A program made the position numbers and the translations under genes. The notes below the pieces were generated by a model. It was given only the letters and a program-made list of their open reading frames with translations. It was not told where the DNA came from and did not search any database. A stretch of 64,000 bases of DNA. It comes from Oscillospiraceae bacterium (GTDB taxonomy: Bacteria > Bacillota > Clostridia > Oscillospirales > CAG-272). Where the stretch lies: the NCBI GenBank assembly GCA_015063805.1, contig SVTK01000010.1, positions 1 through 64,000 on the forward strand, in the 5' to 3' direction. Of the stretch, positions 6,501 to 36,007 are shown piece after piece (positions within the stretch are counted from its first letter, which is position 1; every line of letters starts with the position of its first letter).

Positions 6501-9500
6501 GTGCGCTGCCGGAGGTAAAGGTGACGCGGCGTGGGTTGACGGTCAGCATACCTTCAACTCTCTGTACGATGAACTGCTCGGACACGTCAGCATTTGCTGC
6601 GTCGCGGACAGTGGGCGTACCGGTAACCAGCGAAACGTACTTGCCTGCGTCGGTGCCGGCAGCAGAAGCGGTCAGGCCTTCCACGGTGTAGGTTGCGCCG
6701 TTGACGGTGAAGGTGGTGGTCTTCAGGCCGCTGACGGATTTTTCTTCGCCGTCATAGAGATAGGTAGCGGAGTTGGCTTCCACCGTGATCTCGAACTTGG
6801 CATCGCCGCGGTCGGTGACCGAGAGGGTACCGTATCTCCGGGTGATGGTGTAGTTCTGTGCCTTGGTGCCTGCGTTGAGGGTGTAGGTGAAGGTGTTGTC
6901 GGTGGTACCGACATAGGTGCGGGTACCGGTGACGGTATAGGATGCACCCTCGCCGGTGACAAAGTCGTCGCCGGAAACGGTGACGGTGCTGTTGGTGAGG
7001 GGCGTGCCGTCATATACCTTGGTGTCGGAGGCGGAGGTCAGGGTGATGGCACGGGGCTGAATGGTCAGCGCACCGTCCTTCACGGCGGAGACGATATACT
7101 TTCCGGTGGCGTCAATCGTGCCCACCACCGTGCTGCCGAATGCTGCGGGATAAACTGCCGCATCGGTGCCGGCAGCACCTACGGTGATCCCGGCAAACAC
7201 AGCGTTTGCGTCATCTGCGGTGTAGCCGCTGACGTGTTTCTGGCTGCCGTCATACTTGACGGTGGAGCTGTTGGCGGTCAGGGTGACGTTCTTATAATAG
7301 TAGAAATTGATGACATTTTTCGATGCGTCTGCATCCAGGGTAAGGTTTGCGGTCTGGCCATCCACGGGGGTGTAGCCGGAAACCGAAACGGGGGCCTCAT
7401 CGGTGACGGTGGTGCCGATCACCGCATTGTCAACCGTCTTGGAGGTGGCCAGGGAAGTGGTAGTGCCGTTCCAGTAGTAGTTGACGGTGTAAGAGGTGAA
7501 CTTAGCTTCCCATACCGCGTAGAGGTCGTTGCCGGCCGTGCCGGATACGACTACCGTATCGCCGGGCTGGTAATCCGCTGCTGTAGCGGCGGCATTGGTG
7601 CTCCAGCCGAGGAAGTCGTGGTTTGCATAGGAGAAGCCGGTATCATCCAGGGTGAGAACGGTGTGCTTGGTGTTATTGGGGAGATTGTTCAGCACATGGG
7701 TGTCGCCGGAGCCGTTGTTGGCGTGGTAGGTGAGAGCGGTGTTTTCCGGTGCGGTGTTGCCCCACTTGGCATAGAGTGTGACATCGGACAGGATCTGTAC
7801 CCGCTCGTTGGGCTGGTAAGTGGTGCCGCTTCCGTCGGCAGCAGTATTCCAGCCGAGGAAGAACTGGCCGGCCTTGGTCAGACCTGCAGCGGACTTCGCC
7901 ACAGCCTCACTGTACTCCAGGTAGGTATTGCTGTCGGTGGGGACTGCACCCGTACCGCCGTTGGCGTTATAGGTTACGGTGAAGGTGGTCTGGCTCACAT
8001 AGTAGGGGTAGAGCTCGATACTTTCATACAGCTTGGTGTCAAAGTTGAACATGGCACCGTCAGCCGTTACCCAGCCGATCCAGTCATAGGTACCGGTCAG
8101 GGGGTAGGCGGGGATCTTGTCGTTGGGAATCATGGTGCCGTAGTCCACATTAAAGGACTGCAGGATGGTGTTGTTATCGGTGCCGATACGGCCCGAATAG
8201 AAGGTAGCGGTTACGGTGGGTTCTACCCATTTTGCATAGACGGCAAGATTGCCTGCCGGCATGGTCTGTCCTTCGAAGACCACGGGAGAGCCGGCCAGCT
8301 CTGCGTTGTCATACCAGCCTGCAAAGGTGTAGCCGACGGGAACGGTGTCGGGACGTGCGGGGGTGTGTGCGACGTCATCCAGGCTGGCAGCGAACTGCTT
8401 GGTGATGGTGGACTCGGTGTTGCCGCCGTTGATAAACACGATGTTGTAGTCGTTTCTGGTGTAGAAGAACTCAACGTAGTAGGTATTGCTGTTGCCCACA
8501 CGGGTGAAGCCGGAGTTGTCGGGCAGGTTGTTGGTGTAGGTAAAGCCGATGATGGGGTAGTGGTCCTCTTTGGTGGTATTCCAGTTGTTCATGGAGCTGG
8601 TGAACACGTCCTTGTGATCCAGGGCGTAATTTTTTCCGTTGTAGGTACGGGCACCGGGAGTGCCGTCAAGTACCTCGGTGAAATAGTAGAGCTCCATGGT
8701 ATATCTGCCGCCGTCCGAGGAGGGCTTGTAGAAGGTATCGCCGCCCAAAGGCATGGTATCAATACCGCTCTGCCACGGTTCAGATGCGTCATTTCCCTGC
8801 CAGTTGGTGGTTGTACCCCAGATGGACGAGGTGGAGGAGGGCCAGAGATTGCCGATGTGTGCACCGTACTTGGCGGTGATGGTCAGGCTGTCAATGTTGC
8901 TCCATCTGCGGGAGGAATACTGCTTGAAATAGATGGAGTATTCATTGCGGTCATAATACACATCCACGATGGTGGAGCCGTCGGCGGCGATGGTTTTCTG
9001 GGTGATGGTCTGTGCGGTGAAACCGTCGTATCGCTTGGCGGATGCATTGGTGGATGCATTGGTGGTACCGGTTTTTTCCTCACTCTCGTGGTAAGAGTAG
9101 CCGTCGTCATCAGCGTTCTCCCACCAGTGAATGACCAGGTACTCGGTGTTGGTTGCATTCTTCCAGACTGCGTGAAGGGTGATGCTCTCGGTCAGGGAAG
9201 AGCCGAAGGTATAGGCGGTACCGTTCTCGGTGAGGGACCAGTGCGAGAAGGTATAGCCGGGACGTACCGGAGCATCAGGGGCCTTGGTTGCCGTCAGAGG
9301 GGGAACAAAGGTGGGCCAGATGTACGAGGCGCCGGCGCCGGACTCATAGGTGATCCAGTAGCCAGAGGAAATGATGGGGGTGAGGACGATGTCAGCGCCG
9401 TTGATGGTTACGCTATCGCCCACGGTGTTGCCGGCCTCATCCTTCCAGCCGGTGAGTGCGGTGTCGGCATAAAGATGCAGCGAAACGTCGGATACCGAGA

Positions 9501-9927
9501 TGGTGTCGCCGGTCTTGCCTTCCTTGGTGACCAGCACCGAGCCGTTCTCGGCGTTGAGGAAGTATACATAGTATGCCTCCTCGAATTTTGCGGTCAGTTT
9601 GATCTCTTCTTCAGCAGTGACCGCCAGTGCCTGGTTGAAGGAAGTAAAGAGGGTGTTGTCTTCAGTATACCACCCTGTAAACTTCATGGAATCCTTATAG
9701 GGAGCGGCAGGTTCCGTCAGGGCTTCACCGCTCTTTACGTTCTGTCTTGCGTATTCCGTTCCGTCGACATAAAACACGAAGGAAAGGATTGCGCCTGCCT
9801 CATCCCCGGGGGTCAGGGAAAGGGGAGTGGGCGAAGCACTTTCTGCCGCAATGTTGATGGGCAGAAACGATACGACCATGCACAGCGTAAGAAATACGCT
9901 GATCAGTCTCATCCAGTTCTTTTTCAT
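526..9927 (-). CDS. Giant S-layer-anchored surface protein (InlB repeats, MBG/YDG repeats, SpaA, SLH)
   Basis: A 3133-residue exported protein. Residues 1-28 are a signal peptide. Up to about residue 870 there are some six Listeria-Bacteroides/InlB-type repeats with the signatures GWYT, GYTFAGWYD and VTLYAKW. A run of about eleven bipartite modules of roughly 170 residues follows. Each pairs a half containing YDGTEK..VSGFK..DAG with a half containing KEYDGTPLTN..GDGFA..GSQT, which is typical of MBG/YDG adhesin domains. A SpaA/Cna-like domain (about 2810-2900, VETVAPEGYML) precedes three SLH domains (ITRAEVATIF, ITRAEFAAIA, ITRAEAMTVI) that should bind pyruvylated wall polymer. The start is fixed by GGAGG eight bases before ATG. 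It lies 52 bp downstream of a small co-oriented gene and is probably co-transcribed with it. It is likely an adhesin or S-layer-associated scaffold; no catalytic domain is seen. Confidence 0.9.
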   Translation of the reverse strand: MKKNWMRLISVFLTLCMVVSFLPINIAAESASPTPLSLTPGDEAGAILSFVFYVDGTEYARQNVKSGEALTEPAAPYKDSMKFTGWYTEDNTLFTSFNQALAVTAEEEIKLTAKFEEAYYVYFLNAENGSVLVTKEGKTGDTISVSDVSLHLYADTALTGWKDEAGNTVGDSVTINGADIVLTPIISSGYWITYESGAGASYIWPTFVPPLTATKAPDAPVRPGYTFSHWSLTENGTAYTFGSSLTESITLHAVWKNATNTEYLVIHWWENADDDGYSYHESEEKTGTTNASTNASAKRYDGFTAQTITQKTIAADGSTIVDVYYDRNEYSIYFKQYSSRRWSNIDSLTITAKYGAHIGNLWPSSTSSIWGTTTNWQGNDASEPWQSGIDTMPLGGDTFYKPSSDGGRYTMELYYFTEVLDGTPGARTYNGKNYALDHKDVFTSSMNNWNTTKEDHYPIIGFTYTNNLPDNSGFTRVGNSNTYYVEFFYTRNDYNIVFINGGNTESTITKQFAASLDDVAHTPARPDTVPVGYTFAGWYDNAELAGSPVVFEGQTMPAGNLAVYAKWVEPTVTATFYSGRIGTDNNTILQSFNVDYGTMIPNDKIPAYPLTGTYDWIGWVTADGAMFNFDTKLYESIELYPYYVSQTTFTVTYNANGGTGAVPTDSNTYLEYSEAVAKSAAGLTKAGQFFLGWNTAADGSGTTYQPNERVQILSDVTLYAKWGNTAPENTALTYHANNGSGDTHVLNNLPNNTKHTVLTLDDTGFSYANHDFLGWSTNAAATAADYQPGDTVVVSGTAGNDLYAVWEAKFTSYTVNYYWNGTTTSLATSKTVDNAVIGTTVTDEAPVSVSGYTPVDGQTANLTLDADASKNVINFYYYKNVTLTANSSTVKYDGSQKHVSGYTADDANAVFAGITVGAAGTDAAVYPAAFGSTVVGTIDATGKYIVSAVKDGALTIQPRAITLTSASDTKVYDGTPLTNSTVTVSGDDFVTGEGASYTVTGTRTYVGTTDNTFTYTLNAGTKAQNYTITRRYGTLSVTDRGDAKFEITVEANSATYLYDGEEKSVSGLKTTTFTVNGATYTVEGLTASAAGTDAGKYVSLVTGTPTVRDAANADVSEQFIVQRVEGMLTVNPRRVTFTSGSAQKEYDGTPLTNNNVTVGGDGFAAKDANLVTFNVTGSQTLVGVSPNTFDYVLTSRQLSNNYTITKIEGELRVVTRDAKYEVSVYANDGEFKYDGTEKTVTGFKSLTATIDGKVYTISGLTAEGKATHAGTHFVTVSGTPVVKDALGNDVSNEFDVDAFPGRLIITKRDVTLTSATRDKEYDGTPLYDHTVTVTGDGFAEGEGVNTHVTGAQTLVGTTPNSFTYTPKEGTLLSNYNIQKIQGQLTVRNLSAPNQITVEALSGNFQYDGTEKSVSGFKTLTFKVNNVDYTVEGLTASGKGTDAGTYSVTVSGTAIVRDKAGNDVSDQFDVSVVHGEITIAKRTLILTSATDTKEYDGSPLTNDTITVTGDGFAENEGATYTVTGIQTLPGESENRFTFAPHAGTKRDNYIITINYGTLTVTDRAAKYEITLHVNSGEYLYDGKEKTVSGFRNTEFEVAGLDFTVTGVTASVSATDAGSYPVQITGTPVVLDASGNDVTSQFIVHIDHGTLTINKRTLTLVSAKDSKFYDGTPLTNSNISIIGAGFADNEGATYHVTGSQLLPGESDNTFTYTLIPGTKAENYNITTAFSKLTVFSVQAKYEITVVANNGQFQYDGTEKSVSGFNSLTFQINGVSYTVEGVRAEAKGTDAGYYPVTISGNAIVKDARGNDVTDQFAVNYRQGTMQITQRNITMTSGNAEKIYDGLPLTNNTVTVTGDGFAAGEGATYQVTGERTLPGTSTNHFEYTLNANTKAQNYNITKNFGNLTVNNRGAKYEITVKAKSDVLVYDGQPHAITELEQTKFTVDGNVYTVTGLNVEGVGTDAGEYTVRVWGTPVVWDNAGHDVTAQFTVHTDNGTLVIQKRAVTVTSASDEKEYDSLPLTNHQISVTKGSFVGTEGLVYTVSGTQTLVGSSQNLFTYAAKANTKLANYIITTEYGTLTVKDRTQKYEITLEANSGTFTYDGKEKQVSGFKTLTFTFDGNVFTAEGVTASAAATNAGTYPVTVQNLDKLVILDAAGNDVTGQFIVGTVNGSMTINPRRVVLSSTSLEKEYDGTPLTNGNHPLTVSEGGFADGEGVDVTFTGSQTNVGTSANTFTYTLKSGTNEKNYEIRVNEGQLKVINRSDATKYEITLIANSADLIYSGKIEYVNGFKTLTFTFDGKNYTVSGVKAFAEGVDAGKYTVNITGDPVVTAEDGTVVTDQFKINYIRGTLNIQHREVYLISADLTKQYDGTPLTNGKTPLVNANRGDGFVDGEGVDITFTGSQTLPGTSANSFTYTFKSGTKAINYHIHVEEGQLTVTNRNVAYKIYLTANSGSFKYDGTEKTVSGFKTLVVGVDSNNNNILEANEPKAEFDLSASNEVKFTWNGISYTLTGLTASGKGTGADEYAVSASGTAVIKNAAGEDVSAQFAVIVKEGMLVINKRTLTMTSPTATKQYDGYPLTAHGITVTGDGFAAGEGATYNEIGSQTHVGESPNTFFYTLNQGTRAENYEITKEYGKLTVTDRLDKYEITLEAKSGSFKYDGTAKEVKGFKNLTFTFNGITYQVSGVSASASATDAGEYTVAVSGTPVVRDENGKDLTSLFKITTVEGKMAITKRSVFLTSASDMKDYDGTPLVNHQIEVTGDGFAQGEGADFNVTGSQTEIGVSDNTFSYTLRSGTKADNYIITTMFGKLEVLLATGNVTLHKVDSEDQNTSLKDAVFSLYQTGIFGDVLMESYSTDVNGLIEVTNLKAGVYYWVETVAPEGYMLDTQKHYFTLSAGDHVEVLVTNVRTPVPPVFSLDHFAYVIGYPDGTVRPEAPITRAEVATIFFRLLSDDVRNNYLTKENAFSDVEPKAWFNTAISTLTAMGIVNGYPDGTFRPDSFITRAEFAAIAARFDTNGNTLPANFTDLYDHWSAEEVSIAANNGWLLGYGDDLFRPDQDITRAEAMTVINRVLQRIVKDPANLLPNMVTWSDNLDPAKWYYLAVQEATNSHDYRREADGFEIWLALQPNRDWKEFEE

Positions 9928-25323: not shown

Positions 25324-28300
25324 TCAGTCAAAGATCCAGGTGCCCAGCGGTTTTTCCTTTTCATCCACGATGTCAATCTTCTTTTCTCCGCTTTCCTCAA
25401 AAGCAGAGCCGTCGATGAGCAGATTTTCGGCATCAATATCGGTATTGATGATCTGCGTGGCGTTTTCCCAGTCGGCGACCAGGATGTTTTCGTATTCCGC
25501 TTCCGCGCGCGCGCTCATGAACATTGCGGCGGGGTTGACGGCAACGTCCCGGTCAAAGAGGAGTGTCTCCAGCGAAACGCCGTTCCACCAGTTCATGACG
25601 GGATACTTCCAGCGCGGGTTGGTGACGACTTTGGCACCATTGGTTGTTTGGATCTGTGCGGGCCGACGCTTGAGGATCAGATCGACCTTTCCTTCGGTCT
25701 TCGCGCCAAGCAGATCGGACAGACGAAGCTCATCGCGGCCGTTGTGCTTGTCGTGACCGGGACGTCCGGGATTGGGGTAGTGGCCGTTGCCCAGGGCGCG
25801 GTATTCGCCGAAGTAGTTCTTGTACATATAGATGGTGCTGCCGTCGCGAACATCAAAGTCAGTGCCGTTGTTGATGAAATTGCTGTCGGTGAAACGGAAG
25901 TAATACGAACTGGCATATTTGTTGAGTGAAAGGACCTGCACAGCCGTGCCGTTGTTGATGAAGGTGTTGTTTCTCCATGTGCTGAGGATTTGTGATCCTG
26001 TCAGCCGCATACCGATGTCAAAGCGGATTGCGATGGTGTTGTTGATGTAAATGTTGCCGTTCATGGAGGAGACGAGCCCCTTCCAGGATGTGTCAAGTGC
26101 CACATCGTAGTCGTAGAATACGCAGTTGTTGACGGTTCCGGCACCATTACGGACCGCAATCATCTCATCACTGCTTCCGCTGCGATCGGGGGCGATAAAG
26201 CAAATATTGGACATTTTGGGCCCCTGTGCTTCGTTGAGATCCACACTGCCGATCAGACGGGTGTTTGTTCTTCCGTGCAGATTCAGCCTTGTGCCAAGTT
26301 TGGTGGGAATTGTGATCGTTCCCACGTAATCGATATCAGCCAATCTGATGGAGATGATCGAGCTTTTATCATTTTCCACGATCTCCTGCAGGAGGCTGTT
26401 GAGTCCCTGGTGGAATTCGCCGTCTTCGTCGATATAGTCTTCCACGCTCAAAATGTCAAGGAGCGCACAGTCATATTCTCCGATCGACCGATAGTCACTC
26501 ATACAGGTAACGCCGATATCTCCGGTGATGGTCTGGCCCTCGATCGTTGCCGTTACGGTTGCCCAGAGGCGGACATAGGCATAACGTGCCGGCTTGAAGT
26601 AGAGTTCCCAGTTGCTTCCGTTTGCGTTCGGAATGACCTCGGTTACATAGGCCTTATCGCTGAGGCTGAAGACCGCTTCCGTACCGTATAACGGCTCGAT
26701 CCAGACCTTCGACACCGTGATCTTTGCCTTGTTGCCCGGCAAGACTTCATAATATTTTGCGCCTTCACTGTCGGTTTTGATCTCGGCTGCCGTAATGTCG
26801 AAATCCCTGAACAGCTTGTAGGGGTCATTTTCGGAGGGAGCGGCAGCTGACGTACTGCCCATCGACCCCGTTCCTCCTTCGATGATGTCGATGATCTCCC
26901 CGCGCGCAAACGAAAAACCAACCACATAGTCGCCCAGATAGAGCTCATGGATATGCATTTTCTTTGCTGCATAAATCCGATAATCGTTGATCAGCAGCTT
27001 GTCGTTCTGTTTGATTTGCAGCGAATAGTTGAGTTCGCCGGACGGAGGCTTCGGCAGGGTGATCTTCAGATCGTATCTGCCGGCCGCCCCGGGGCGCTCT
27101 GCCCAGGCAATCGAGAAGTTGGAAAAGTCAGTTCTGTTGTAATTGACTTTAACCTCGATCCCGGCGCGTTCTTCGGCGGTGAATCCATCCTCGGATAGGA
27201 ACCAGATGGAGCCGTTTTCCAGATCAAACCAGGAAATGTCGGGGAGATAATTCTCTGTGGTGCGCGCCTGTGCGGAGAAGAATGCATATTCGGGGATTGA
27301 GACCGACAGCGTGTGTGCACCGGTGATCGACTTGCCGTTGCTGAGATAGCGGTACTGCAGGACGGTTTCGCCCGGCTCGACATATTTGAGATCCCAGCAC
27401 AGGCCCCCGTCGCTGGCCATTTGCGTGACAACCTTCACACTCTTTCCGGAGAGGACCGTCAGGTCGGTTACCGGGACATGGGCGTCAATCGTGCCGTAGT
27501 AGAGACGAAGCGTCGTTGTGTGCTCAAGCTGGATTGGCAGCTGCTCAATCGAAAGCAGCTTTGTGTTGGGATTTTCCTGGGGGGTGTTGCTGACCCAGGT
27601 TAACGTGCGGAACAGCAGACCGGGTTTCGGTTCCATTTGGAGGGAAAGCGCTCTGCTCTCTGCCATGCTGCTGCCGTTTGCATTCGTGTAGCGCAGCCGG
27701 AAAGAGGTGCTGGAACTGGGCAGTTCAAGGATCGCGCTGTCAAAGGTCACTTTGAAATCGTATCTTGCGGTTGCATCGGGGGCGGCAGGATCCCGCTTGA
27801 CTGCTTCAGCCTTGACCCCGTTCCCGAGCCAGTTCGTGGAAAGCCCCTGGATTTCGGTATATGTAAACCCGTTTTTCGACATAAACCACAGCGTAGTCTG
27901 CCCTTCAAACGGCAGGACGTAGCTGGTGATGAAATTCGCCTCGCTGCGTGTCTGCGTGGTATGCCAGCTGCTTGCGGGGAGGCTGACGGTGACTTCTGTG
28001 GTGTAGACGGTGCTGCCGTCGGTGTAGGTCAGGGTAACCGTGCCGAAGGTCTTGGGGGTAAGGCGATAGCGAAGGCCATCGCTGGCCTTCGCGACCGTCA
28101 GAATTGTGGGGTCGGACGAGGTCAGCGTGCCCGATGTCAGAGCGGTCTGCGTGCCGGAGGAGGTGCCGTAGTAGAGATAGAGATTCGGCGTAGAGCCGGG
28201 CGACAGCGGATACGACGACAGCGGCTGAGCGCTGTTGTTGAGATTGGTTTTATACAGCAGCGCCGGCTTTTCCTGCATCTTGAGGAAGAGGTTGCTGCTG

Positions 28301-30315
28301 CTCATCGAATCACTGACCAGTTTGAGCGAGGAATTCGTCTGGGGCAGCTTGACGATGCTGCTGTCGATGGTTACCTTGATGTCATAGCGCGCGGTGGTAT
28401 CGGAATCGGCGGCGTTGCGCTTGACCGGCGTGACGGTGACACCGTTTCCGCAGGGAGTACCGGTGTTGTTCGCCCACCAAACGGCCGAAAGGTTCTGCAG
28501 CGTATTGTAAGAGAACCCGGGTTCCGACAGGAACCACAGCGTGGTCAGGCTTTCCCGCGGCAGGGTGTAGCTTGAGCTGATAATGTAAGTTTCAGCACTG
28601 CGTGTCTGCGCGGTGTACCAGCCGCTGCCGGGCAAGTTGACGGTAACCTCTGCCGTGTAGGCCGTGCCGCCTTCGGTATACGTCAGCGTGACTGTGCCGA
28701 GGGACTTTGTGGTAAGGCGGTAGCGCTCGCCATTTCGCGAGACCGTCAGGATGTTCTCATTGGACGAGGTCAGCGTGCCCGCTGTCAGGGCAGTCTGCGT
28801 GCCGGAGGACGTGCCGTAGAAGAGATAGATATCGCGCGTACTGCCGAGCGACGGATTGAACAATGCCAGCGGGGATGCGTTCTTTTGCGTTGTACTTGTT
28901 TTGTACAGCAGCGTCGGCTTTTCCTGCATCTTGAGGGAGAGGTTGCTGCTGCGCAACGAATCGCCAACCAGTTTGAGCGAAGAAGTCGTCTGAGGCAGAT
29001 CGACGGTGTCGCTGTCGATGATTACCTCGATGTCATAGCGTGCGGCCGTATCGGAATCAGCAGCGTTGCGCTTGACTGTCTTGACGGTAACGCCGTCCAA
29101 GCAGGGGGTGTCAACTCTGTTCACCTGCCAAACGGCAGAAAGGTTTTGCACCATGTTGTAGGAGAACCCGGATTCCGACAGGAACCACAGCGAAGTTTTT
29201 CCTTCCGTGGGCAGGGTAAAGCTGGTGATGTAATTTGCCGCATTGTACGCCCGTGCAGAGAACCACGCCTGTGTTGGCAGGACAACGCTTACTTCTGCCG
29301 TGTACTTAATGCTTCCGTCGGTATAGGTCAGCGTTACCGTACCGGGGGCCTTGTAGGTCAGGCGGTATATGTCGCCATCCTTCTCAACCACCAGCAGATT
29401 GGGGTTGGAGGAGGTCAGTGTGCCCGCCGTCAGCGCGGTCTGCGTGCCGGAGGCCGCGCCGTAATAAAGGTAGATAGACGAACTGTTACCGAGTGTAAAT
29501 GCACATTCGGCCAGCGGCTGGGGGGCGTTGCTGGGCTTGGTTTTGAACTGCAGTTCGGGAACTTCCTCCATGCGGAGCGTGAGTCTCAGCCCGGACGTGG
29601 TGTCGAAGTGCAGCTGCAGAACTGTGTTATTGGGGATATCTACCACAGCGCCGTCGAAGGTCACCTTGACGTCGTACCGTGCAGCTTCATTGGGGTCGGC
29701 AGCGTTGCGCTTGACCGCCTTGATGTCGACACCGTCGGCAGTTCCGCAGGGCGTATCGATGTTGTTCATTCGCCAGCTCGCGGTAATGTTCTGTGTTATA
29801 TTGTAAGAGAAGCCTTCCTCCGACAGGTACCACAGCTCGGTTTTGCTGTCACGCGGCAGCGTGTAGTCTGCGACGTAGGTTTTTTTGCTGCGTTCCTGGG
29901 CGGAGTACCATCCCTCGAAGGGAAGTCCGACGGTGACTTCTGCCGTGTAGGTGGTGCTTCCGGCAGTATAAGAGAGCGTCACCGTGCCGAATTTTTTGGT
30001 GCGGAAACGGACACGGTCGCCGTTCTGCTCGACCGACAGCACTGTCTCATCGGAGGAAGTCGGCAGCCCCGTCAAGCGAGTCTGTGTTCCGGAGGCCGTA
30101 CCGTAGTATAGGTAGAGATTTGTATTGGAATAGGCGGAAAAAGTATAGGTCGACAGCGGCCATGCTTTGCCGGCATCTCCGGTTTTGAACAGCAATGTCG
30201 GTGTCTCTTCCGCGGCTTTGGAGGTATCGAGAGATTCCGCGAATGCAGGTGCAGCGAACACACCCTCCATAATCAAAAGCATGGCAAATACAAATGCCAA
30301 AATACGTTTTTTCAT
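25324..30315 (-). CDS. Large secreted repeat protein with beta-helix domain
   Basis: A 1663-residue exported protein with a signal peptide (1-27). Residues about 35-1090 hold five repeats of roughly 210 residues. Each has LLFKT.., YLYYGTASGTQT, a TVTLTYTDGSTVYTAEV strand, WYSAQ, LWFLSE.GFSYN and VKRNAAD..ARYD. The last repeat is divergent. The C-terminal part (about 1250-1560) resembles a right-handed parallel beta-helix of the pectate-lyase type (NNCVFYDYDVAL, YINNTIAIRF, RNNTFINNGTAVQV, DSNFINNG). No SLH or sortase motif is seen, so it may be released or held by partners. AAAGGAG precedes ATG. It is first in a two-gene operon with the Ig/InlB protein. The beta-helix suggests polysaccharide binding or cleavage; catalytic residues cannot be assigned. 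Confidence 0.82.
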   Translation of the reverse strand: MKKRILAFVFAMLLIMEGVFAAPAFAESLDTSKAAEETPTLLFKTGDAGKAWPLSTYTFSAYSNTNLYLYYGTASGTQTRLTGLPTSSDETVLSVEQNGDRVRFRTKKFGTVTLSYTAGSTTYTAEVTVGLPFEGWYSAQERSKKTYVADYTLPRDSKTELWYLSEEGFSYNITQNITASWRMNNIDTPCGTADGVDIKAVKRNAADPNEAARYDVKVTFDGAVVDIPNNTVLQLHFDTTSGLRLTLRMEEVPELQFKTKPSNAPQPLAECAFTLGNSSSIYLYYGAASGTQTALTAGTLTSSNPNLLVVEKDGDIYRLTYKAPGTVTLTYTDGSIKYTAEVSVVLPTQAWFSARAYNAANYITSFTLPTEGKTSLWFLSESGFSYNMVQNLSAVWQVNRVDTPCLDGVTVKTVKRNAADSDTAARYDIEVIIDSDTVDLPQTTSSLKLVGDSLRSSNLSLKMQEKPTLLYKTSTTQKNASPLALFNPSLGSTRDIYLFYGTSSGTQTALTAGTLTSSNENILTVSRNGERYRLTTKSLGTVTLTYTEGGTAYTAEVTVNLPGSGWYTAQTRSAETYIISSSYTLPRESLTTLWFLSEPGFSYNTLQNLSAVWWANNTGTPCGNGVTVTPVKRNAADSDTTARYDIKVTIDSSIVKLPQTNSSLKLVSDSMSSSNLFLKMQEKPALLYKTNLNNSAQPLSSYPLSPGSTPNLYLYYGTSSGTQTALTSGTLTSSDPTILTVAKASDGLRYRLTPKTFGTVTLTYTDGSTVYTTEVTVSLPASSWHTTQTRSEANFITSYVLPFEGQTTLWFMSKNGFTYTEIQGLSTNWLGNGVKAEAVKRDPAAPDATARYDFKVTFDSAILELPSSSTSFRLRYTNANGSSMAESRALSLQMEPKPGLLFRTLTWVSNTPQENPNTKLLSIEQLPIQLEHTTTLRLYYGTIDAHVPVTDLTVLSGKSVKVVTQMASDGGLCWDLKYVEPGETVLQYRYLSNGKSITGAHTLSVSIPEYAFFSAQARTTENYLPDISWFDLENGSIWFLSEDGFTAEERAGIEVKVNYNRTDFSNFSIAWAERPGAAGRYDLKITLPKPPSGELNYSLQIKQNDKLLINDYRIYAAKKMHIHELYLGDYVVGFSFARGEIIDIIEGGTGSMGSTSAAAPSENDPYKLFRDFDITAAEIKTDSEGAKYYEVLPGNKAKITVSKVWIEPLYGTEAVFSLSDKAYVTEVIPNANGSNWELYFKPARYAYVRLWATVTATIEGQTITGDIGVTCMSDYRSIGEYDCALLDILSVEDYIDEDGEFHQGLNSLLQEIVENDKSSIISIRLADIDYVGTITIPTKLGTRLNLHGRTNTRLIGSVDLNEAQGPKMSNICFIAPDRSGSSDEMIAVRNGAGTVNNCVFYDYDVALDTSWKGLVSSMNGNIYINNTIAIRFDIGMRLTGSQILSTWRNNTFINNGTAVQVLSLNKYASSYYFRFTDSNFINNGTDFDVRDGSTIYMYKNYFGEYRALGNGHYPNPGRPGHDKHNGRDELRLSDLLGAKTEGKVDLILKRRPAQIQTTNGAKVVTNPRWKYPVMNWWNGVSLETLLFDRDVAVNPAAMFMSARAEAEYENILVADWENATQIINTDIDAENLLIDGSAFEESGEKKIDIVDEKEKPLGTWIFD

Positions 30316-30545
30316 TTTTTCTCCTTTCGATGATGCTTAGATGAAAACAGTCTTTATCCTTTTAATAATAGTGGTAGATCTTCTGTGGCTGTCTCACAAG
30401 AAAAGCCCCCTTTTCCCATTTATCGTTTTTAATTTCGCTTTCTTGGGTAAATCCCCCCGATAATAAAGACTTCAAAAACAGGGGGAAGGTTTTGTTTTTT
30501 GAAAATTTGAAAAAAGAAGTTTGGGGCGGAGATACAGAAATGAGA

Positions 30546-30583
30546 AAAAGAAGCAAGAAACGGGTGTGTTTCTTGCTTCTTTT
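30546..30583. terminator. Bidirectional terminator after the truncated integrase
   Basis: A perfect 16-bp inverted repeat (30546-30561 with 30568-30583) with A-rich and T-rich arms. It lies just past the end of integrase homology and is read through in the residual open frame. The rest of 30316-30545 is upstream sequence of the 1663-residue protein gene with no gene. Confidence 0.7.
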
Positions 30584-30595
30584 CGGTTTACATTT

Positions 30596-30835
30596 GATTG
30601 ATTGTTCAGATAATTCGCCCTCGCGCAGGGTGTTGATCCAGTCCTCGAGATCATGCCGGGTCAGCTCTCCCAGCGGCACATTTCCGTCGCAGCGCTTGAA
30701 TAATGCCCGACTGTGGTGCTTGTATGTCTGGAGTGTCTTGTCGGTTACTCCTCTCGCGGAAGCTGCCCGAAAGAACAGGGAAAAGGCCTGTTCTACGGTG
30801 ATTTCGTCTGTCTTTTTCATCGTGATTCTCGCCAT
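30596..30835 (-). pseudogene. N-terminal stub of a second tyrosine integrase
   Basis: The first 80 residues (VEQAFSLFFRAASARGVTDKTLQTY..LTRHDLEDWINTLREGELSEQSI) match the SAM-like core-binding domain of a tyrosine recombinase and parallel the N terminus of the complete integrase at 34885-35826. Homology then stops. The frame stays open to 30362, but only through terminator and AT-rich sequence, so the catalytic domain is lost. Its start lies 65 bp from the left att repeat, against 67 bp for the complete integrase and the right repeat. It is therefore probably the remains of an earlier element at the same tRNA. Confidence 0.75.
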
Positions 30836-30899
30836 TTCTGCACCTCTTGAATGATCGAAATTTCAGAAAATTCAAGCGCTGCAGTAAAAGGCTCGAAAG

Positions 30900-30983
<84 letters not shown>

Positions 30984-31143: not shown

Positions 31144-31704
31144 TTACAGCCCCATTTCTTTTACCCGCCGATAGAATGTATTCGGCTTCAAACTTACTTC
31201 ATCCATCGCGGCTCTTGCGGTAATCTCTCCCGCACGCCACCGCGCACAGACAGCCTTAAACCGCGCCTCGTCAACGTCAACTGGTTTGCGGCCTTTGTAC
31301 TTGCCTTCGCTCTTGGCAATCTCTATACCCTCTCTCTGCCGTTCCAGAATGCTTTCTCGTTCAAGTTCAGCCAGCGCACCGAAAACGGTCAACATAAACC
31401 GTCCCTGCGGCGTCGTGGTGTCAATACTTTCTTTCAGCGAAACAAACTCTACACCCTTTTCGGTTAGTTCAGCGACTATTGAAAGCAAGTCGCGTGTGTT
31501 CCTTGCAATGCGGGAGATACTTTCTACAATCACCATATCTCCCTCTCGGACATACGCCATCATTGCCCGAAATTCTGTGCGCTCGGTGTTCTTGCCGCTT
31601 GCTTTGTCGATGAACAGCTTTTCTACTGCTTGCTCTTCCATCATTTTGAGTTGTCGCGCTTCGTTTTGTTCAACTGTGGAGCATCTGACATATCCTACCC
31701 GCAT
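31144..31704 (-). CDS. Serine recombinase (resolvase/invertase family)
   Basis: A 186-residue small serine recombinase. The N-terminal catalytic domain begins VGYVRCSTVEQNEARQ, with the nucleophile Ser in RCST. VIVESISRIARNTRDLL carries the second conserved Ser-Arg block. LFGALAELERE is here VFGALAELERESILERQREGIEIAK, leading into the long E-helix. The C-terminal GKYKGRKPVD and ITARAAMDEVSLKPNTFYR form a Hin/resolvase-type helix-turn-helix. ATG 31704 has AAAGGA ten bases upstream; the in-frame GTG at 31713 lacks SD spacing. It could resolve multimers or invert DNA of the element. It has no in-frame TAG and ends in TAA. Confidence 0.93.
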   Translation of the reverse strand: MRVGYVRCSTVEQNEARQLKMMEEQAVEKLFIDKASGKNTERTEFRAMMAYVREGDMVIVESISRIARNTRDLLSIVAELTEKGVEFVSLKESIDTTTPQGRFMLTVFGALAELERESILERQREGIEIAKSEGKYKGRKPVDVDEARFKAVCARWRAGEITARAAMDEVSLKPNTFYRRVKEMGL

Positions 31705-31871
31705 ATACTGCACATCCTTTCTTTACTCTACCAATAGTATACCACAAAAAAGAAAGAATGTCAATAGGGTTATTGTTTTATTTGAAATATTTCAAATGTT
31801 GTTTTGCATATGTGTGACACATAATTTCGTGCTTGTTTATATTGTCAAAAGGGTATAGTCTATTGAAACAG

Positions 31872-31909
31872 ATATCCAAGGAGCGGGAATTGTCCCGCTC
31901 CTTGGATAT
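31872..31909 (-). terminator. Terminator downstream of the SHOCT gene
   Basis: A perfect 17-bp stem (31872-31888 with 31893-31909, 4-nt loop) lies six bases after the stop codon of the SHOCT-domain gene. It is the only structure in the 31705-31915 gap. Confidence 0.8.
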
Positions 31910-31915
31910 GTGTGT

Positions 31916-32575
31916 TTATTGGCCAAGCAATTGTTTTTTCTTTGCGTCAAATTCCTCTTGTGTTAAAATACCGCTGTCGAGAAGCTCCTTAAATTTCTTA
32001 AGCTCATCTGCGGAAGAGATAGGAACGCTTATAGGCGCATGCTTTGCGCTTTTGGCTTCGTCCACCTTTTGTTTAATATAATTTGCGACTTCTTTCATTT
32101 TTTCGTTGCTCACATTGTATTTCTCAAAGGTGAAGGTGTTTTCGTTGAAAAAATTGCTGTGGCGATTGTTCATCATGGTAGAAGCGGTTTCTAACTGTAA
32201 ATAACCAATGGTAAAACCGCTTTTCTTAAACTGAACGCCGATGCAGTCAACATAATAAATTGTTTTTTCTCCATCCGTGATATTGCCCGTAATGAAAGAG
32301 CCGACACTTGCATTTACACGAATTACACATTTTTCTTCGTATACGTCAATATGTCTTCCACGCGCACCGCTGATACTATAAATTGCTGTATTATTGCCCC
32401 CCGTACATGGTGCACTATCAGAATAAATTTCTTTTGGCTTTCTACGTTTGGAGATAAGTAAAATGATGACAATCAATATAATTCCTATTATTGGTATTAA
32501 AATGGTAGGTCTGAAGATAAGTGAAATGATGACAATCAATATAAGTGCTATTATTAGTACTGTAGTGTTACGCAT
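31916..32575 (-). CDS. Membrane protein with C-terminal SHOCT domain
   Basis: A 219-residue protein. Two Ile/Leu-rich transmembrane helices occupy residues 4-42, followed by KRRKPKE. The middle part (HIDVYEEKCVIRV..ITDGEKTIYYVDCIGVQFKKSG..GYLQLET) resembles a PH-like or DUF4429-type beta domain. The C terminus (ADELKKFKELLDSGILTQEEFDAKKKQLLG) is a clear SHOCT domain. Such proteins are common on mobile elements and prophages of Bacillota, with unknown function, perhaps in membrane association or oligomerisation. The DNA coding the two helices is a tandem 63-bp duplication. No in-frame TAG; ends in TAA. Confidence 0.82.
   Translation of the reverse strand: MRNTTVLIIALILIVIISLIFRPTILIPIIGIILIVIILLISKRRKPKEIYSDSAPCTGGNNTAIYSISGARGRHIDVYEEKCVIRVNASVGSFITGNITDGEKTIYYVDCIGVQFKKSGFTIGYLQLETASTMMNNRHSNFFNENTFTFEKYNVSNEKMKEVANYIKQKVDEAKSAKHAPISVPISSADELKKFKELLDSGILTQEEFDAKKKQLLGQ
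32452..32562 (-). repeat. Tandem 63-bp duplication in a transmembrane segment
   Basis: The segment from 32452 is repeated with a 63-bp offset from 32515 with few differences (shared ATGATGACAATCAATATAA). It encodes two successive Ile-rich helices of the SHOCT protein, so the second helix arose by in-frame duplication. Confidence 0.75.
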
Positions 32576-32620: not shown

Positions 32621-32809
32621 TTACGTTGTCTTCATCAATTCCTGCACCGCAATCTGTAATGCACGCGGCACGCCGTCCATTTTGATATACTTCGCAACCG
32701 TTGAACCGCTACGGCCAATTTCCCGCCCAACAGCTGAATAATTTCCGAGCTGTGCGTACAGCCGGTGCATCTCAACGATTTCTGCGGGGGTGACCCTTGG
32801 CGCACCCAT
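32621..32809 (-). CDS. Small helix-turn-helix protein
   Basis: A 62-residue protein with a homeodomain-like/resolvase-type HTH (TPAEIVEMHRLYAQLGNYSAVGREIGRSGSTVAKYI). Its ATG follows directly on the TAA of the upstream gene, so the two are co-translated; the SD is weak (GAGGAC, further upstream). It is probably a DNA-binding regulator or excision-type factor of the element. It is too short for firmer assignment. Ends in TAA. Confidence 0.65.
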   Translation of the reverse strand: MGAPRVTPAEIVEMHRLYAQLGNYSAVGREIGRSGSTVAKYIKMDGVPRALQIAVQELMKTT

Positions 32810-33007
32810 TTACTTAACAACCTTGTCCTCGGGACGGAGAATAGTTTCTTTCATTGCCTTCTCAAACTGTTCTTTCACATACTCCTCAGGCATCCATTTC
32901 TTGTCTGCTCCTGCTTCAGCCAAAATCTTGTTCATCTTGTCCAGTTGGATAAAAAAGTTTTTCGGAACAACAATTCTGCCTTTTTCGGTGTCGATGATGA
33001 TACGCAT
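32810..33007 (-). CDS. Small element protein of unknown function
   Basis: A 65-residue protein with a strong SD (AGGAGG, eight bases before ATG). The N terminus (MRIIIDTEKGRIVVPKNFF) is beta-like and the rest helical and charged (EEYVKEQFEKAMKETI). I do not recognise it. It is the first gene of a two-gene unit with the small HTH protein, and its promoter must lie in the 33008-33110 AT-rich stretch. Confidence 0.65.
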   Translation of the reverse strand: MRIIIDTEKGRIVVPKNFFIQLDKMNKILAEAGADKKWMPEEYVKEQFEKAMKETILRPEDKVVK

Positions 33008-33109
33008 AATAGCGTCCTCCTAAAATAAAATATTTATATCCTGTGCTATCCGCACAAAACATCACAATAAACACTTTGTTTTCGCCAAATTTCAAGAGAA
33101 TACAGATAT

Positions 33110-33214
33110 AATCAACTCGAATATGACTTGAATCAACTGCAATTCAATTAAAATCGAATGCAATTCACATGAAATCAAACTGAAACAAATTGAATTCCAT
33201 TAAAGTGCATATGA
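33110..33214. repeat. Degenerate 21-bp iteron-like array
   Basis: Units starting at 33110, 33131, 33152, 33173 and 33194 recur every 21 bp. The first four open with AATC, and neighbours share AATCAACT (units 1-2) and TGCAATTCA (units 2-3) at the same phase. The 33008-33538 gap otherwise holds no gene and is very AT-rich, with TTCGYGAAAAAA repeats near 33391-33420 and a promoter at 33454. Arrays of 20-22-bp iterons upstream of an initiator-like gene are typical of plasmid origins. Confidence 0.55.
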
Positions 33215-33453
33215 ATCACAACGATAACGGCGAATTTTATCCGCATTTCAGCGCGAAACAGGTCAAATCATTTTGGATACGGCCATTTTCTTTTTGATTT
33301 TCCCGAAACATACCCGTACTGCGGAATTTCCTTGTGTTTGCATCTCTTTCTATATATAAAGACCCCATGCAGAGATGAAAGGTTTTATATTTCGTGAAAA
33401 AATTCAAAAATTCGCGAAAAAAGTCTTTTTTTTGCTCCCTCAACCGACCTTAT

Positions 33454-33482
33454 TTGATTTTTTATAAAAAATATTGTATAAT
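33454..33482 (+). promoter_or_regulatory. Promoter of the TAG-containing operon
   Basis: TTGATT (33454-33459), 17-bp spacer, TATAAT (33477-33482). A short palindrome GAAAGT..ACTTTC just downstream (about 33491-33506) could be an operator. Confidence 0.7.
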
Positions 33483-33538
33483 ATTTACAGAAAGTAAAAA
33501 CTTTCTAAATTTAAAAAATGTGAAAAAGGAGTATAATT

Positions 33539-33799
33539 ATGCAACTCACCATAAGTACTTTGGTAGAAAAATTATTAGATGCTATCGATAAGGATTAGAA
33601 CCCCAATTTCCGGCTTTCGTTCTATGATTCCGTTCGTCAGTTGGAATTTCAAATCTCACGAGAAAGAAAAAAGATGGTGGACGAGATTGTAAATGAGGTT
33701 TTGTCGAGACTCAGTATATCAACCGACACGACGGAAGCAGTCCAAAAGATAGAACAATTATCAAATACAATTCAAAATCTTGGAAAGGAGAGAAAATAA
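33539..33799 (+). CDS. Small coiled-coil protein with one in-frame TAG (recoded gene 1)
   Basis: AAAGGAG lies eight bases before ATG 33539. The frame runs 86 codons to TAA at 33797 and is interrupted only by TAG at codon 20 (33596-33598). Reading TAG as Gln gives KDQNPNFRLSFYDSVRQLEF, a continuous amphipathic helix region, then IEQLSNTIQNLGKE. No family is recognised; the length and charge suit a small helical accessory or partition-type protein. Under the standard code only a 19-residue peptide would be made, and the downstream part has no start signal. One base separates it from the next gene, whose SD lies in its own last codons. Confidence 0.6.
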
Positions 33800-33800
33800 G

Positions 33801-34403
33801 ATGCCGCAGACCTATCCCCATCAGCGGACGATAACTATACATCGTGAACCCGCAAAGCACAACTTCCTCGGAATTCAAAATGATAACTGGTAGGCTGCCG
33901 CCCGCGATCTGGGCGCGCACGCCACTATGTTATATCTGTACCTTGCATCCAATGCGAACGGCTTTGAATTAGCCCTCTCGCAAAAGGCAGTCACAGAAGC
34001 AATTGGGATGCCGCGCTCAACCTATCATGACCAATTTCACAAGCTGGTCAGCAAAGGTTATCTGGTTTTAGAGCATGGGAACACCTATGCTTTTTATGAA
34101 ACGCCCCAGCCGCGTCCCGGAGAAGAGGACAAAAATGCCATGTCGGGCGACGGTTTTGAAGCTCCGCAGGAAAACACCCCTATATCCTCTGACGGACAAA
34201 CATTACCGCCCATGGATAGAGAAATAAATAATATAAATAATACAATAAATAAGAAAAATATTTAGGAAGCCCCCTTAAAGGGAAAGTATCATGTAGAGAC
34301 GACAATCAGAGAAGTTGTTATCCCCAATCCGGATGAGGAGAGAAGAAAAGAGAAATCAACCCCAAGTCCATGGCAGAATGAGAAAGGGGAGTTTATATTC
34401 TGA
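33801..34403 (+). CDS. Replication-initiator-like HTH protein with two in-frame TAGs (recoded gene 2)
   Basis: AAGGAG lies before ATG 33801. A 200-codon frame ends in TGA at 34401 and is broken only by TAG at codons 31 (33891-33893) and 155 (34263-34265). The segment W-TAG-AAARDLGAHATMLYLYLASN, then KAVTEAIGMPRSTYHDQFHKL and GYLVLEHGNTYAFYE, matches a winged-helix type found on small Bacillota elements. In relatives known to me the residue after Trp is Gln, as TAG-to-Gln would give. The C-terminal tail after codon 155 (EAPLKGKYHVETTIREVVIP..) stays open for 45 codons. The stop overlaps the next start (TGATG). With the upstream iterons it is a candidate replication initiator. Confidence 0.72.
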
Positions 34404-34834
34404 TGTGTCCAAGAGCAAACAGCTATGTGGAAAACTTCTGCAATCACCTCCGACGCAATGGGTATAGTGAAAAGTATGAGCAAGCGGGAATATACAGCAT
34501 CAGCATTGACCAGACGCTTGTTTACATTGGCAAAAGCCATAATATGCTCGTTCGTGTGGCATAGCATTATGTCAATATCAAGAAGCAAGAGGAATGCAAA
34601 TACCGTATCTTGGCAGAGGCTTGCCGTAAACATCACAGCATCAATTTTGACGTGATGTATTATGCAAAAGAAATTGATGAAGATGCCGTTACAGAAGAAA
34701 TCGGCCAGAAGGAAGGGGAATTGATACGGCAATACCGTCCTGCGTTGAATACATAGATACCCCATGAGGACAATTGGCGTGAGTATGATTTCGTCCCCAT
34801 CGACGTTAGAAAAGTGCGGAAAACGCTGTTGTAA
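34403..34834 (+). CDS. GIY-YIG nuclease-like protein with two in-frame TAGs (recoded gene 3)
   Basis: ATG 34403 overlaps the stop of recoded gene 2 (TGATG). A 143-codon frame ends in TAA at 34832 and is broken only by TAG at codons 54 (34562-34564) and 118 (34754-34756). The GIY-YIG motif is intact (GIYSISIDQTLVYIG), with KYRILAEACRKH, catalytic-type Arg in MLVRVA, and Glu in QKEGELIRQYRPALN. TAG read as Gln gives RVAQHY and LNTQIP, both natural for this domain. As standard code the protein would be split into three pieces, two without starts. It may be a homing-type or element-competition nuclease. Confidence 0.72.
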
Positions 34835-34841
34835 ATAAAGA

Positions 34842-34869
34842 GAAGCGGGAGCAAATTCACTCCCGCTTC
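34842..34869. terminator. Bidirectional terminator
   Basis: A perfect stem GAAGCGGGA (34842-34850) with TCCCGCTTC (34861-34869) between the convergent recoded operon (+) and integrase (-). Confidence 0.8.
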
Positions 34870-34884
34870 ATTCGTTTGTTTATG

Positions 34885-35826
34885 TTATTTCCGTCTCGTG
34901 TCTATCTTGATTCTTTGATTATTGGATTTCATCTGCGCAAGGGGTGAAAAATTATCATAATTTTTCGTCAAATCTGCATCGAAAATTGCGCAGTAATGTT
35001 TTGTCATAGCAAGCGTCGAATGCCCCAAAAGCTTCTGCAAAGTAAATGCATCGCCGCCGCAGTCAATGAGATACTTTCGCGCGAACGTGTGTCGGAAGAG
35101 ATGTATACTTGTCTTCTGGACACCGCGCCGCGTATTGTAGCGTGCAATGGACTGCCGTAGACCGTTCTCTGTCATCTGTGAGCCGGTCTCGGTGCAGAAT
35201 AGATAGTCCGACTCGCCGCCCTCTCGATAGCGCAGATATTCCCGCAGAATGGCAATCATCGGCGTGCAGAGAGGAATTACCTGCACCTTGCGGTTTTTTG
35301 TGTGGCGATAGAAAACCGTCCCGCTGTCCAAATCCACATCACGGATTAAGATAGCACGAACCGTCGCGGCGCGGCATCCGCAGTTAAGCAAAAAGTTAAT
35401 AATTACCCAGTCCCGGTATTCCGCAAAGGTTGTCTTGCGGATATCGGGCTTTTTTAACAGCTTCTCCAATTCAGTATCGCTGTAAGTTTCCTTCACGGTT
35501 TCCTCGCTCTTGTAGAGCCGCACATTGAGTCGGGTTATTCCTTCCTCATTGCACCAAGAAAAGAATGATTTCAGCACTCGTGTATAGCTGTTGATACTAT
35601 TGGCCGCAAGTCCGCTGTCCCGCATACTCACAATCATATCATCCAAGTCTGCCTTTTGGAGCAGGGAAATATCCTGCTTAATATCCAGATGTTTTGCAAT
35701 GGCTTGAAACTGGCTTTGATAACTCACCAGCGTCTTTTCGGCAAGCCCTTTTATCTTGCGCGAAAGCATAAATTTTGCGAAGGTTTCCTCGACCGACTCG
35801 GTCAAATTCAACTTGATTTTTGCCAT
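34885..35826 (-). CDS. Tyrosine integrase of the tRNA-Ala element
   Basis: A 313-residue tyrosine recombinase. The SAM-like core-binding domain spans about 8-98. The catalytic domain has all expected residues: Arg in NCGCRAATVRAIL, Lys in HTKNRKVQVIPL, HLFRHTFA (His-x-x-Arg), LLGHSTLAMTKHY (second His and the nucleophile Tyr). AGAGGA precedes ATG 35826. It starts 67 bp inside the right att repeat and points away from the tRNA, the usual arrangement for tRNA-targeting elements. No in-frame TAG; ends in TAA. It should catalyse integration at the anticodon-loop region of tRNA-Ala(GGC). Confidence 0.95.
   Translation of the reverse strand: MAKIKLNLTESVEETFAKFMLSRKIKGLAEKTLVSYQSQFQAIAKHLDIKQDISLLQKADLDDMIVSMRDSGLAANSINSYTRVLKSFFSWCNEEGITRLNVRLYKSEETVKETYSDTELEKLLKKPDIRKTTFAEYRDWVIINFLLNCGCRAATVRAILIRDVDLDSGTVFYRHTKNRKVQVIPLCTPMIAILREYLRYREGGESDYLFCTETGSQMTENGLRQSIARYNTRRGVQKTSIHLFRHTFARKYLIDCGGDAFTLQKLLGHSTLAMTKHYCAIFDADLTKNYDNFSPLAQMKSNNQRIKIDTRRK

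Positions 35827-35892: not shown

Positions 35893-36007
<115 letters not shown>

What the first reader, a model, noticed from the sequence alone, without database searches (positions are those of the whole stretch)
33539..34834. Three-gene operon readable only if TAG is a sense codon, probably Gln
Three adjacent frames (33539-33799, 33801-34403, 34403-34834) have good SD signals, a TGATG coupling junction, and TAA or TGA ends. Inside 429 codons there are five TAGs (33596, 33891, 34263, 34562, 34754), no TAA, no TGA and no frameshift. Sense Gln codons in the set are 12 CAA and 8 CAG, so TAG would be about a fifth of Gln codons. Decay by C-to-T change should hit CAA as readily as CAG and give TAA too. 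Read as Gln, the codons give W-Q-AAARDLGAH, RVAQHY and LNTQIP, which fit the HTH and GIY-YIG families as I know them. TAG-to-Gln recoding is established in some gut phages. I know of no description of it in a small tRNA-integrated element of a standard-code host, though I cannot search.
Basis: partly seen in the sequence, partly recalled or inferred. Interest (0 to 1): 0.93.

Follow-up and report, generated by a model that had tools for sequence, protein, structure and literature searches.

The report
Mobile island gated by stop-codon recoding
A 5-kb mobile DNA island in a bacterium carries three genes that stay open only if the stop codon TAG is read as an amino acid, by comparison with relatives likely glutamine, while its other genes are open in the normal code; no tRNA that reads TAG was found, so it is likely brought in by an infecting phage, which would make the genetic code itself the switch that turns the island on.

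Summary
They lie in a 4,993-bp island between 84-bp repeats at a tRNA-Ala gene, 42% G+C in a 56% G+C host. TAG fits Gln: on DNA-verified relatives Gln scores +55 nats, the next residue (Glu) -16; three window sites are Gln in 104-120 of the 120 listed homologues. It is a family trait: 21 of 32 related genome loci (29 of 32 named as Clostridia) carry in-frame TAG in these genes, and searches that read through stops met TAG but no TAA or TGA. Recoding is confined by gene: TAG is 29% of Gln codons in the GIY-YIG nuclease, 7% in the replication-initiator-like gene, about 0 in integrase and resolvase, some of which appear to end on TAG. The host has RF1 and frames ending on TAG. No UAG-reading tRNA was recognised in the islands, in 33 of 34 host tRNA matches, in two strain genomes carrying TAG-bearing islands, or in related recoded phage records. 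Best reading: a satellite-like island whose initiator and nuclease are made full length only when a recoded phage supplies the tRNA. TAG=Gln is strong; the trans-supplied tRNA is inferred.

The parts
30900..30983 (.). left attachment repeat (84 bp, identical to 35893-35976), carrying a copy of part of the tRNA-Ala gene
31144..31713 (-). serine recombinase / resolvase, standard code, 0 TAG, ends TAA
   Evidence: Pfam PF00239 E=8e-44; similar gene in 17 loci including the window
31916..32575 (-). SHOCT-domain protein, standard code, 0 TAG, ends TAA
   Evidence: Pfam PF09851 E=3e-10
32621..32809 (-). small HTH-like protein, standard code, 0 TAG, ends TAA
   Evidence: PF13936 E=3e-4, below its cut-off; similar gene in 18 loci
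32810..33007 (-). small protein of unknown function, standard code, 0 TAG, ends TAA
   Evidence: no Pfam match; similar gene in 19 loci
33454..33482 (+). sigma-70-like promoter (TTGATT-17-TATAAT) just upstream of the operon
   Evidence: consensus match only
33539..33799 (+). gene 1, 86-aa protein of unknown function, TAG at 33596 (Q20)
33801..34403 (+). gene 2, 200-aa winged-helix replication-initiator / helicase-loader-like protein, TAG at 33891 (Q31) and 34263 (Q155)
   Evidence: phrog_270 E=2e-8; primosome DnaB, RctB N-domain, weak
34403..34834 (+). gene 3, 143-aa GIY-YIG endonuclease, TAG at 34562 (Q54) and 34754 (Q118)
   Evidence: PF01541 over cut-off; T4 EndoII, UvrC GIY-YIG
34842..34869 (+). 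hairpin terminator-like site after the operon, found on both strands
34885..35826 (-). tyrosine integrase, 313 aa, standard code, 0 TAG, ends TAA
35893..35976 (.). right attachment repeat, overlapping the tRNA-Ala gene
35932..36007 (-). tRNA-Ala (GGC), the integration site

Best explanation
The window holds a 5-kb tRNA-integrated island whose initiator-like/nuclease operon uses TAG as a sense codon, predicted to be glutamine, and the tRNA that reads it is likely supplied in trans by an infecting TAG-recoded phage. The integrase, resolvase, SHOCT protein and two small proteins are open in the standard code and could be made in the host at any time. In the uninfected host the ribosome would stop at codons 20, 31 and 54 of the three operon genes, giving fragments without the HTH domain or the Glu and Asn that are catalytic in GIY-YIG enzymes (residue roles recalled). 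When a recoded phage brings its UAG-reading tRNA-Gln, full-length initiator and nuclease would appear, so the island would replicate and act on DNA only while such a phage is present (inferred, untested). The island would thus behave like a phage satellite that senses its helper through the genetic code.
For: TAG=Gln: (Gln +55.2 nats over 57 TAG in 35 columns, next residue Glu -16.4; mean Gln fraction at TAG columns 0.35 against 0.045 background; highest of 5000 random placements 0.13). Family-wide: 21 of 32 genome loci with at least one aligned TAG in the operon. No competing stops: strong nuclease matches (7 distinct, window included) each hold 1-3 TAG, 16 in all, and no TAA or TGA; of 8 initiator matches hold TAG, none TAA/TGA; the weak nuclease matches (21, 8; most in frames of about 600 aa, probably host UvrC) show no stop. 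Gene confinement: TAG/(TAG+CAA+CAG) 35/122 nuclease, 21/306 initiator-like gene, 5/55 gene 1, 1/338 integrase core, 1/147 resolvase core; nuclease v integrase Fisher p=3e-21; five integrase and three resolvase frames have a TAG after the core, probably their stop. Host: frames ending on TAG and RF1. No CTA-anticodon tRNA in the window, by default ARAGORN in 35 related loci, by Rfam in the element, in 33 of 34 tRNA matches of the host assembly, or in 45 of 46 and 48 of 50 tRNA matches of two strain genomes carrying TAG-bearing islands. A recoded 27-kb phage record has the same kind of nuclease upstream of its terminase.
Against: No decoding tRNA was found anywhere, so its source is not shown; the recoded phage records related to L033 lack one too (records may be fragments). 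11 of 32 related loci have no TAG in the operon, so recoding is not obligatory. Two of three phage records found with the nuclease beside this terminase type (L109, L110) have TAG-free terminases. Helper, packaging, replication role and nuclease target are untested. Site 34263 is Asn in most relatives, and only 15 of 57 TAG fall in columns at least half Gln. The host assembly is 89% complete and lacks several expected tRNAs.
Confidence: 0.5

Rival explanations
1. TAG is Gln, but read at low level by the host's own tRNA-Gln(CUG) by near-cognate pairing. The TAGs act as a constant brake that keeps a dose-sensitive initiator and nuclease scarce; no phage is needed.
For: No dedicated UAG-reading tRNA among the tRNAs read in two strain genomes, which both hold tRNA-Gln(CTG). 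TAG is densest in the nuclease, the gene most likely to be toxic. TAG positions are not significantly fixed (within-sequence shuffle p=0.14 nuclease, 0.07 initiator), as expected if any TAG will do.
Against: Nuclease genes with three TAG would be made at very low levels. In related phage records a terminase with 10 TAG and a 3125-aa frame with 17 could hardly be made that way, so a real decoder probably exists in this gene pool.
Confidence: 0.22
2. The island or its phage kin encode their own UAG-reading tRNA that ARAGORN and the Rfam tRNA model do not recognise (split, shortened or otherwise odd).
For: None of the parties that use the code has a recognisable decoder. In one survey 375 of 715 code-15 phages had a Sup-CTA tRNA, so nearly half had none predicted (PMC11210395, passage seen).
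Against: Relaxed ARAGORN over 37 sequences gave 1, 4 and 11 CTA candidates at 90, 80 and 70% thresholds, none in the window's island; the one at 90% lies inside an initiator gene (L066). The largest unassigned stretch of the window's island is about 0.5 kb (33008-33538).
Confidence: 0.12
3. The operon was captured from a recoded phage and is a silent passenger in this host, kept only by recent arrival.
For: A related nuclease and winged-helix gene sit in a recoded phage record. No expression data.
Against: Relatives about 45-70% alike in other genomes keep the same reading frames with TAG but no TAA or TGA in the matched parts, and sites such as W30-Q31 are unchanged in 120 of 120 listed homologues, which points to selection on the read-through protein.
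Confidence: 0.11
4. Ordinary decay: the five TAG are nonsense mutations in a dying prophage remnant.
For: A truncated integrase of what looks like an older element lies beside the island (30362-30835).
Against: Five of five are TAG, none TAA/TGA; TAG falls on Gln-rich columns; same pattern in other genomes.
Confidence: 0.03

Closest known systems
TAG-to-Gln recoded (code 15) gut phages (crAss-like, Lak and others)
   Same: TAG read as Gln in a standard-code host. Peters et al. 2022 (PMC9523058, passages seen) report Gln at TAG by proteomics in two crAss-like phages and say such phages are particularly prevalent in Firmicutes and Bacteroidetes hosts.
   Different: Those are whole phages, about half with a predicted Sup-CTA tRNA (375 of 715, PMC11210395, passage seen). 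This is a 5-kb integrated island with no structural gene found, and the recoded genes are initiator-like and nuclease genes.
Small phage satellites such as PICIs and PICMIs
   Same: Small chromosomal island with integrase and a replication-type module and no structural genes (general features recalled; PICMI abstract start seen, PMC10803314).
   Different: Known satellites answer helper proteins or helper infection (recalled); no listing ties one to a change of genetic code. Helper and packaging here are unknown.
GIY-YIG endonucleases: T4 EndoII, UvrC N-domain, phrog_1111
   Same: Pfam GIY-YIG just over its cut-off; predicted fold nearest T4 EndoII and UvrC (best E 1e-3).
   Different: A small stand-alone enzyme with in-frame TAG in 17 of 24 distinct DNA-read members; target unknown.
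25-27-kb phage records of the IMGVR_UViG_3300037249_000425 type
   Same: That record (L033) has the nuclease upstream of the terminase, a TAG-free integrase (Pfam) and TAG in many other genes.
   Different: Phage records with terminase and portal-type genes; kin differ in code use (terminase 0 to 10 TAG at 75-79% identity).

Membership tests
code 15 (TAG=Gln) genetic element | in-frame TAG aligned with Gln in homologues | tested here: met
code 15 (TAG=Gln) genetic element | encodes a Sup-CTA tRNA | tested here: not met
   not obligatory, 375 of 715 code-15 phages had one (PMC11210395)
code 15 (TAG=Gln) genetic element | Gln found by proteomics at TAG | not testable with these tools
   no spectra available
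integrative mobile element | integrase, att direct repeats, tRNA target, foreign G+C | tested here: met
   84-bp repeats 4,993 bp apart; 0.419 v 0.563 G+C; repeats 4.4-9.6 kb apart in 6 of 13 relatives tested
phage satellite | no structural genes, small, replication-type module | tested here: met
phage satellite | induced and packaged by a helper phage | not testable with these tools
   no induction or particle data
prophage | terminase, portal, tail genes between the att sites | tested here: not met
   none among the genes between 30900 and 35976
GIY-YIG endonuclease | GIY and YIG motifs, conserved Arg, Glu, Asn | tested here: met
   PF01541 above cut-off; G29-I30-Y31, Y41-I42-G43, R51, E104, N116 invariant in 17 aligned; motif roles recalled
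pyrrolysine (UAG=Pyl) gene | UAG at a Pyl site with tRNA-Pyl(CTA) | tested here: not met
   TAG columns favour Gln; no CTA tRNA at default thresholds in host, islands or two strain genomes; pyl enzymes were not searched

The most novel reading that the evidence does not exclude
The genetic code itself is the induction signal: a standard-code island keeps its replication initiator and a DNA nuclease locked behind UAG codons, and the UAG-reading tRNA of an invading recoded phage is the key that unlocks them, giving a satellite or a defence that fires only against phages that change the code.
Probability: 0.35. Interest if true: 0.96.

Novelty: new variant of a known kind. Interest (0 to 1): 0.87.

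Why it matters
TAG recoding is known from phages, about half of which bring a recognisable decoder. Here small islands resident in standard-code bacteria use TAG as a sense codon only in one operon, with no decoder in sight, in many genomes. Either a phage's tRNA acts as a signal for a third party, or a UAG decoder is hidden in these cells. Both would be new as far as my searches go, and both are testable in ordinary amber-suppressor laboratory strains. Standard gene calling would also cut these genes in carrier genomes.

Tried and rejected
Decay of a pseudogene: rejected (TAG only, on Gln-rich columns, in many genomes). A recoded host: rejected, 7 of 108 host frames end on TAG and RF1 is present. 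Pyrrolysine: not favoured. Own suppressor tRNA: ARAGORN at default, relaxed ARAGORN (1, 4 and 11 CTA candidates at 90, 80, 70% in 37 sequences, none in the window's island; two of those in L052 lie in its attachment repeats), Rfam and a home-made cloverleaf scan gave no convincing one; the home-made scan is weak, it missed the window's own tRNA-Ala and tRNA-Pro(TGG). A DNA pattern for CTA tRNAs over 33 carrier genomes gave 10 matches, none a tRNA by ARAGORN, but the same pattern class catches only 19 of 30 of the host's own tRNAs, so it is moderate evidence. Fixed TAG position as a regulatory lock: site 54 is TAG in 9 of 14 Gln-type sequences, but shuffles give p=0.14, not significant. Circular free form: no end overlap in 11 stretches tested, some not whole contigs. 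Iteron-like origin upstream: only weak repeats. Named phages and plasmids: no match for the nuclease (phages) or the initiator (phages, plasmids) by tblastn. Viral contigs: none with the nuclease alone, 7 loci with its alignment, none confirmed of 39 pattern matches with the initiator alignment. PADLOC: weak hits only (best E 0.002). Literature: the listings showed no report of TAG recoding in a satellite or integrated island; Borges et al. 2022 is not held and is recalled only.

Full report
OBSERVATION. Three frames at 33539-33799, 33801-34403 and 34403-34834 hold five TAG (33596, 33891, 34263, 34562, 34754), no internal TAA or TGA, 12 CAA and 8 CAG. Each start has a Shine-Dalgarno-like stretch and genes 2 and 3 overlap as TGATG. 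A sigma-70-like promoter lies at 33454-33482 and a hairpin terminator-like site at 34842-34869 (consensus matches only).

THE ELEMENT. An 84-bp exact direct repeat, 30900-30983 and 35893-35976, start to start 4,993 bp; the right copy overlaps tRNA-Ala (GGC). G+C is 0.419 inside the element against 0.563 in 200 kb of host. Besides the operon it holds a tyrosine integrase, a resolvase, a SHOCT-domain protein, a small HTH-like protein and a small unknown; all five are open in the standard code, end on TAA and contain no TAG. No structural phage gene was found. A truncated integrase of what looks like an older element lies just outside (30362-30835).

WHAT THE GENES ARE. Gene 2 is a winged-helix protein like phage replication initiators (phrog_270, E=2e-8); its modest model (mean pLDDT 61) is nearest primosomal DnaB and the RctB N-domain, none at E 0.001. 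Gene 3 is a GIY-YIG endonuclease (Pfam just over its cut-off); its model (pLDDT 77) is nearest T4 EndoII and UvrC (best E about 1e-3). Gene 1 has no known function.

TAG IS GLUTAMINE. Among the 120 listed best of 963 (gene 2) and 799 (gene 3) homologues, site 31 is Gln in 120, site 54 in 104 (14 Glu, 2 Ala), site 118 in 120, site 155 is Asn in 116. All six further relatives of gene 1 have Gln at site 20. Those proteins may come from gene calls with or without code 15, so I repeated the test on DNA: 32 genome loci, four viral contigs (L032-L035) and the window, TAG masked. Over 57 TAG in 35 columns Gln scores +55.2 nats and the next best, Glu, -16.4; for the window's TAGs alone Gln is +5.6 and the next, Met, -1.0. 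The mean Gln fraction at TAG columns is 0.35 against 0.045 overall; the highest of 5000 random placements was 0.13. Only 15 of the 57 TAG fall in columns with at least half Gln; many others lie in variable columns, some near the ends of the frames, and say little.

IT IS A FAMILY TRAIT. 21 of 32 related genome loci have at least one aligned in-frame TAG in the operon; 11 have none (frames there were cut at TAA and TGA, so this call does not test for those). In searches that read through and count all stops, seven distinct strong nuclease matches (window, three in G306, G307, G770, G1124; G1173 has the same place and score as G770) hold one to three TAG each, 16 in all, and no TAA or TGA; of eight initiator matches six hold TAG and none TAA or TGA. 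The weak nuclease matches, most in frames of about 600 aa and so probably UvrC, have no stop inside (21, 8, some apparently the same genomes). G306, G307 and G1124 also gave loci, and G259 seems to be the genome of L053, so these sets overlap.

THE CODE IS CONFINED BY GENE. As a share of Gln codons TAG is 35/122 in the nuclease (24 sequences, 17 with TAG), 21/306 in the initiator-like gene (35, 15 with TAG), 5/55 in gene 1 (11, 5 with TAG), 1/338 in the integrase core (30) and 1/147 in the resolvase core (17), the last two at the very end of the matched stretch; nuclease v integrase p=3e-21, nuclease v initiator p=1e-8. Five integrase and three resolvase frames have a TAG after the core, probably their stop. 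These p-values ignore relatedness. The host assembly has 7 of 108 open frames of 250 aa or more that end on TAG and encodes RF1, as do the four other carrier genomes tested.

NO DECODER FOUND. No CTA-anticodon tRNA in the window, in 35 related loci at default ARAGORN, or by Rfam in the element; relaxed ARAGORN gave a few scattered candidates in relatives and none in the window's island. In the host assembly 33 of 34 tRNA matches were read and none is CTA; the assembly is 89% complete and misses several tRNAs. In two strain genomes with TAG-bearing islands, G306 and G303, 45 of 46 and 48 of 50 tRNA matches were read, 41 and 43 anticodons, none CTA; the three unread ones are cut at contig ends. 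G306 lacks Trp and Asn tRNAs in its list, so it is not quite complete.

RECODED PHAGE KIN. A 27-kb viral record (L033) carries a TAG-free integrase, a winged-helix gene (2 TAG), the GIY-YIG gene (5 TAG), a terminase (10 TAG) and a 3125-aa frame with 17 TAG. Its terminase kin show 0 to 10 TAG at 75-79% identity, many of the TAG on Gln columns, and no TAA or TGA. The nuclease also lies upstream of the terminase in L109 and L110, whose terminases have no TAG. Record L034 has TAG in its winged-helix and nuclease frames but none in terminase or portal. Ten kin records have no tRNA over the cut-off; L033's has one, tRNA-Thr. So the nuclease module occurs in both phages and islands, and the use of TAG changes among close kin.

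MECHANISM. Supported: TAG is kept as a sense codon, Gln by alignment; other genes of the same islands avoid it, and the host uses TAG as stop; no resident decoder was recognised. Inferred: in the uninfected host the products would stop at residues 19, 30 and 53, so the initiator lacks its HTH and the nuclease its Glu104 and Asn116; a phage that supplies a UAG-reading tRNA would unlock both. Read-through by the host's tRNA-Gln is the main rival. The supE test in a laboratory strain separates them.

NOVELTY. Code 15 is known from phages, with proteomic evidence (PMC9523058, passages seen); 375 of 715 code-15 phages carry Sup-CTA tRNAs (PMC11210395, passage seen). I saw no report of it in a satellite or island in the listings, which cover open-licence papers only.

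Noticed in passing
window 30362-30835 and 30867-30983: Truncated integrase N-terminal part beside a 117-bp repeat (89%) of the present element's right end: looks like a remnant of an older element at the same tRNA-Ala site.
   Followed up: partly
L108-L118 (IMG/VR records, up to 27 kb): Related phage records differ between no TAG and many TAG in the same terminase gene (0, 4, 7 or 10 TAG at 67-79% identity): rapid gain or loss of TAG use, with no suppressor tRNA recognised.
   Followed up: partly
L217, L218, L219 (strain genome G306): Three separate places in one genome, each with an integrase nearby, carry a TAG-bearing GIY-YIG gene with different partner genes, and no UAG-reading tRNA was recognised in that genome.
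   Followed up: partly
window 32443-32568: Tandem 63-bp direct repeat (81%) at the start of the SHOCT-protein gene.
   Followed up: no
window 526-9927 and 25324-30315 (minus strand): Two very large open frames (3133 and 1663 aa); the second gave no Pfam match over its cut-off, the first was not searched.
   Followed up: no
window 31868-31913: Near-perfect hairpin with 21-nt arms between the resolvase and SHOCT genes.
   Followed up: no
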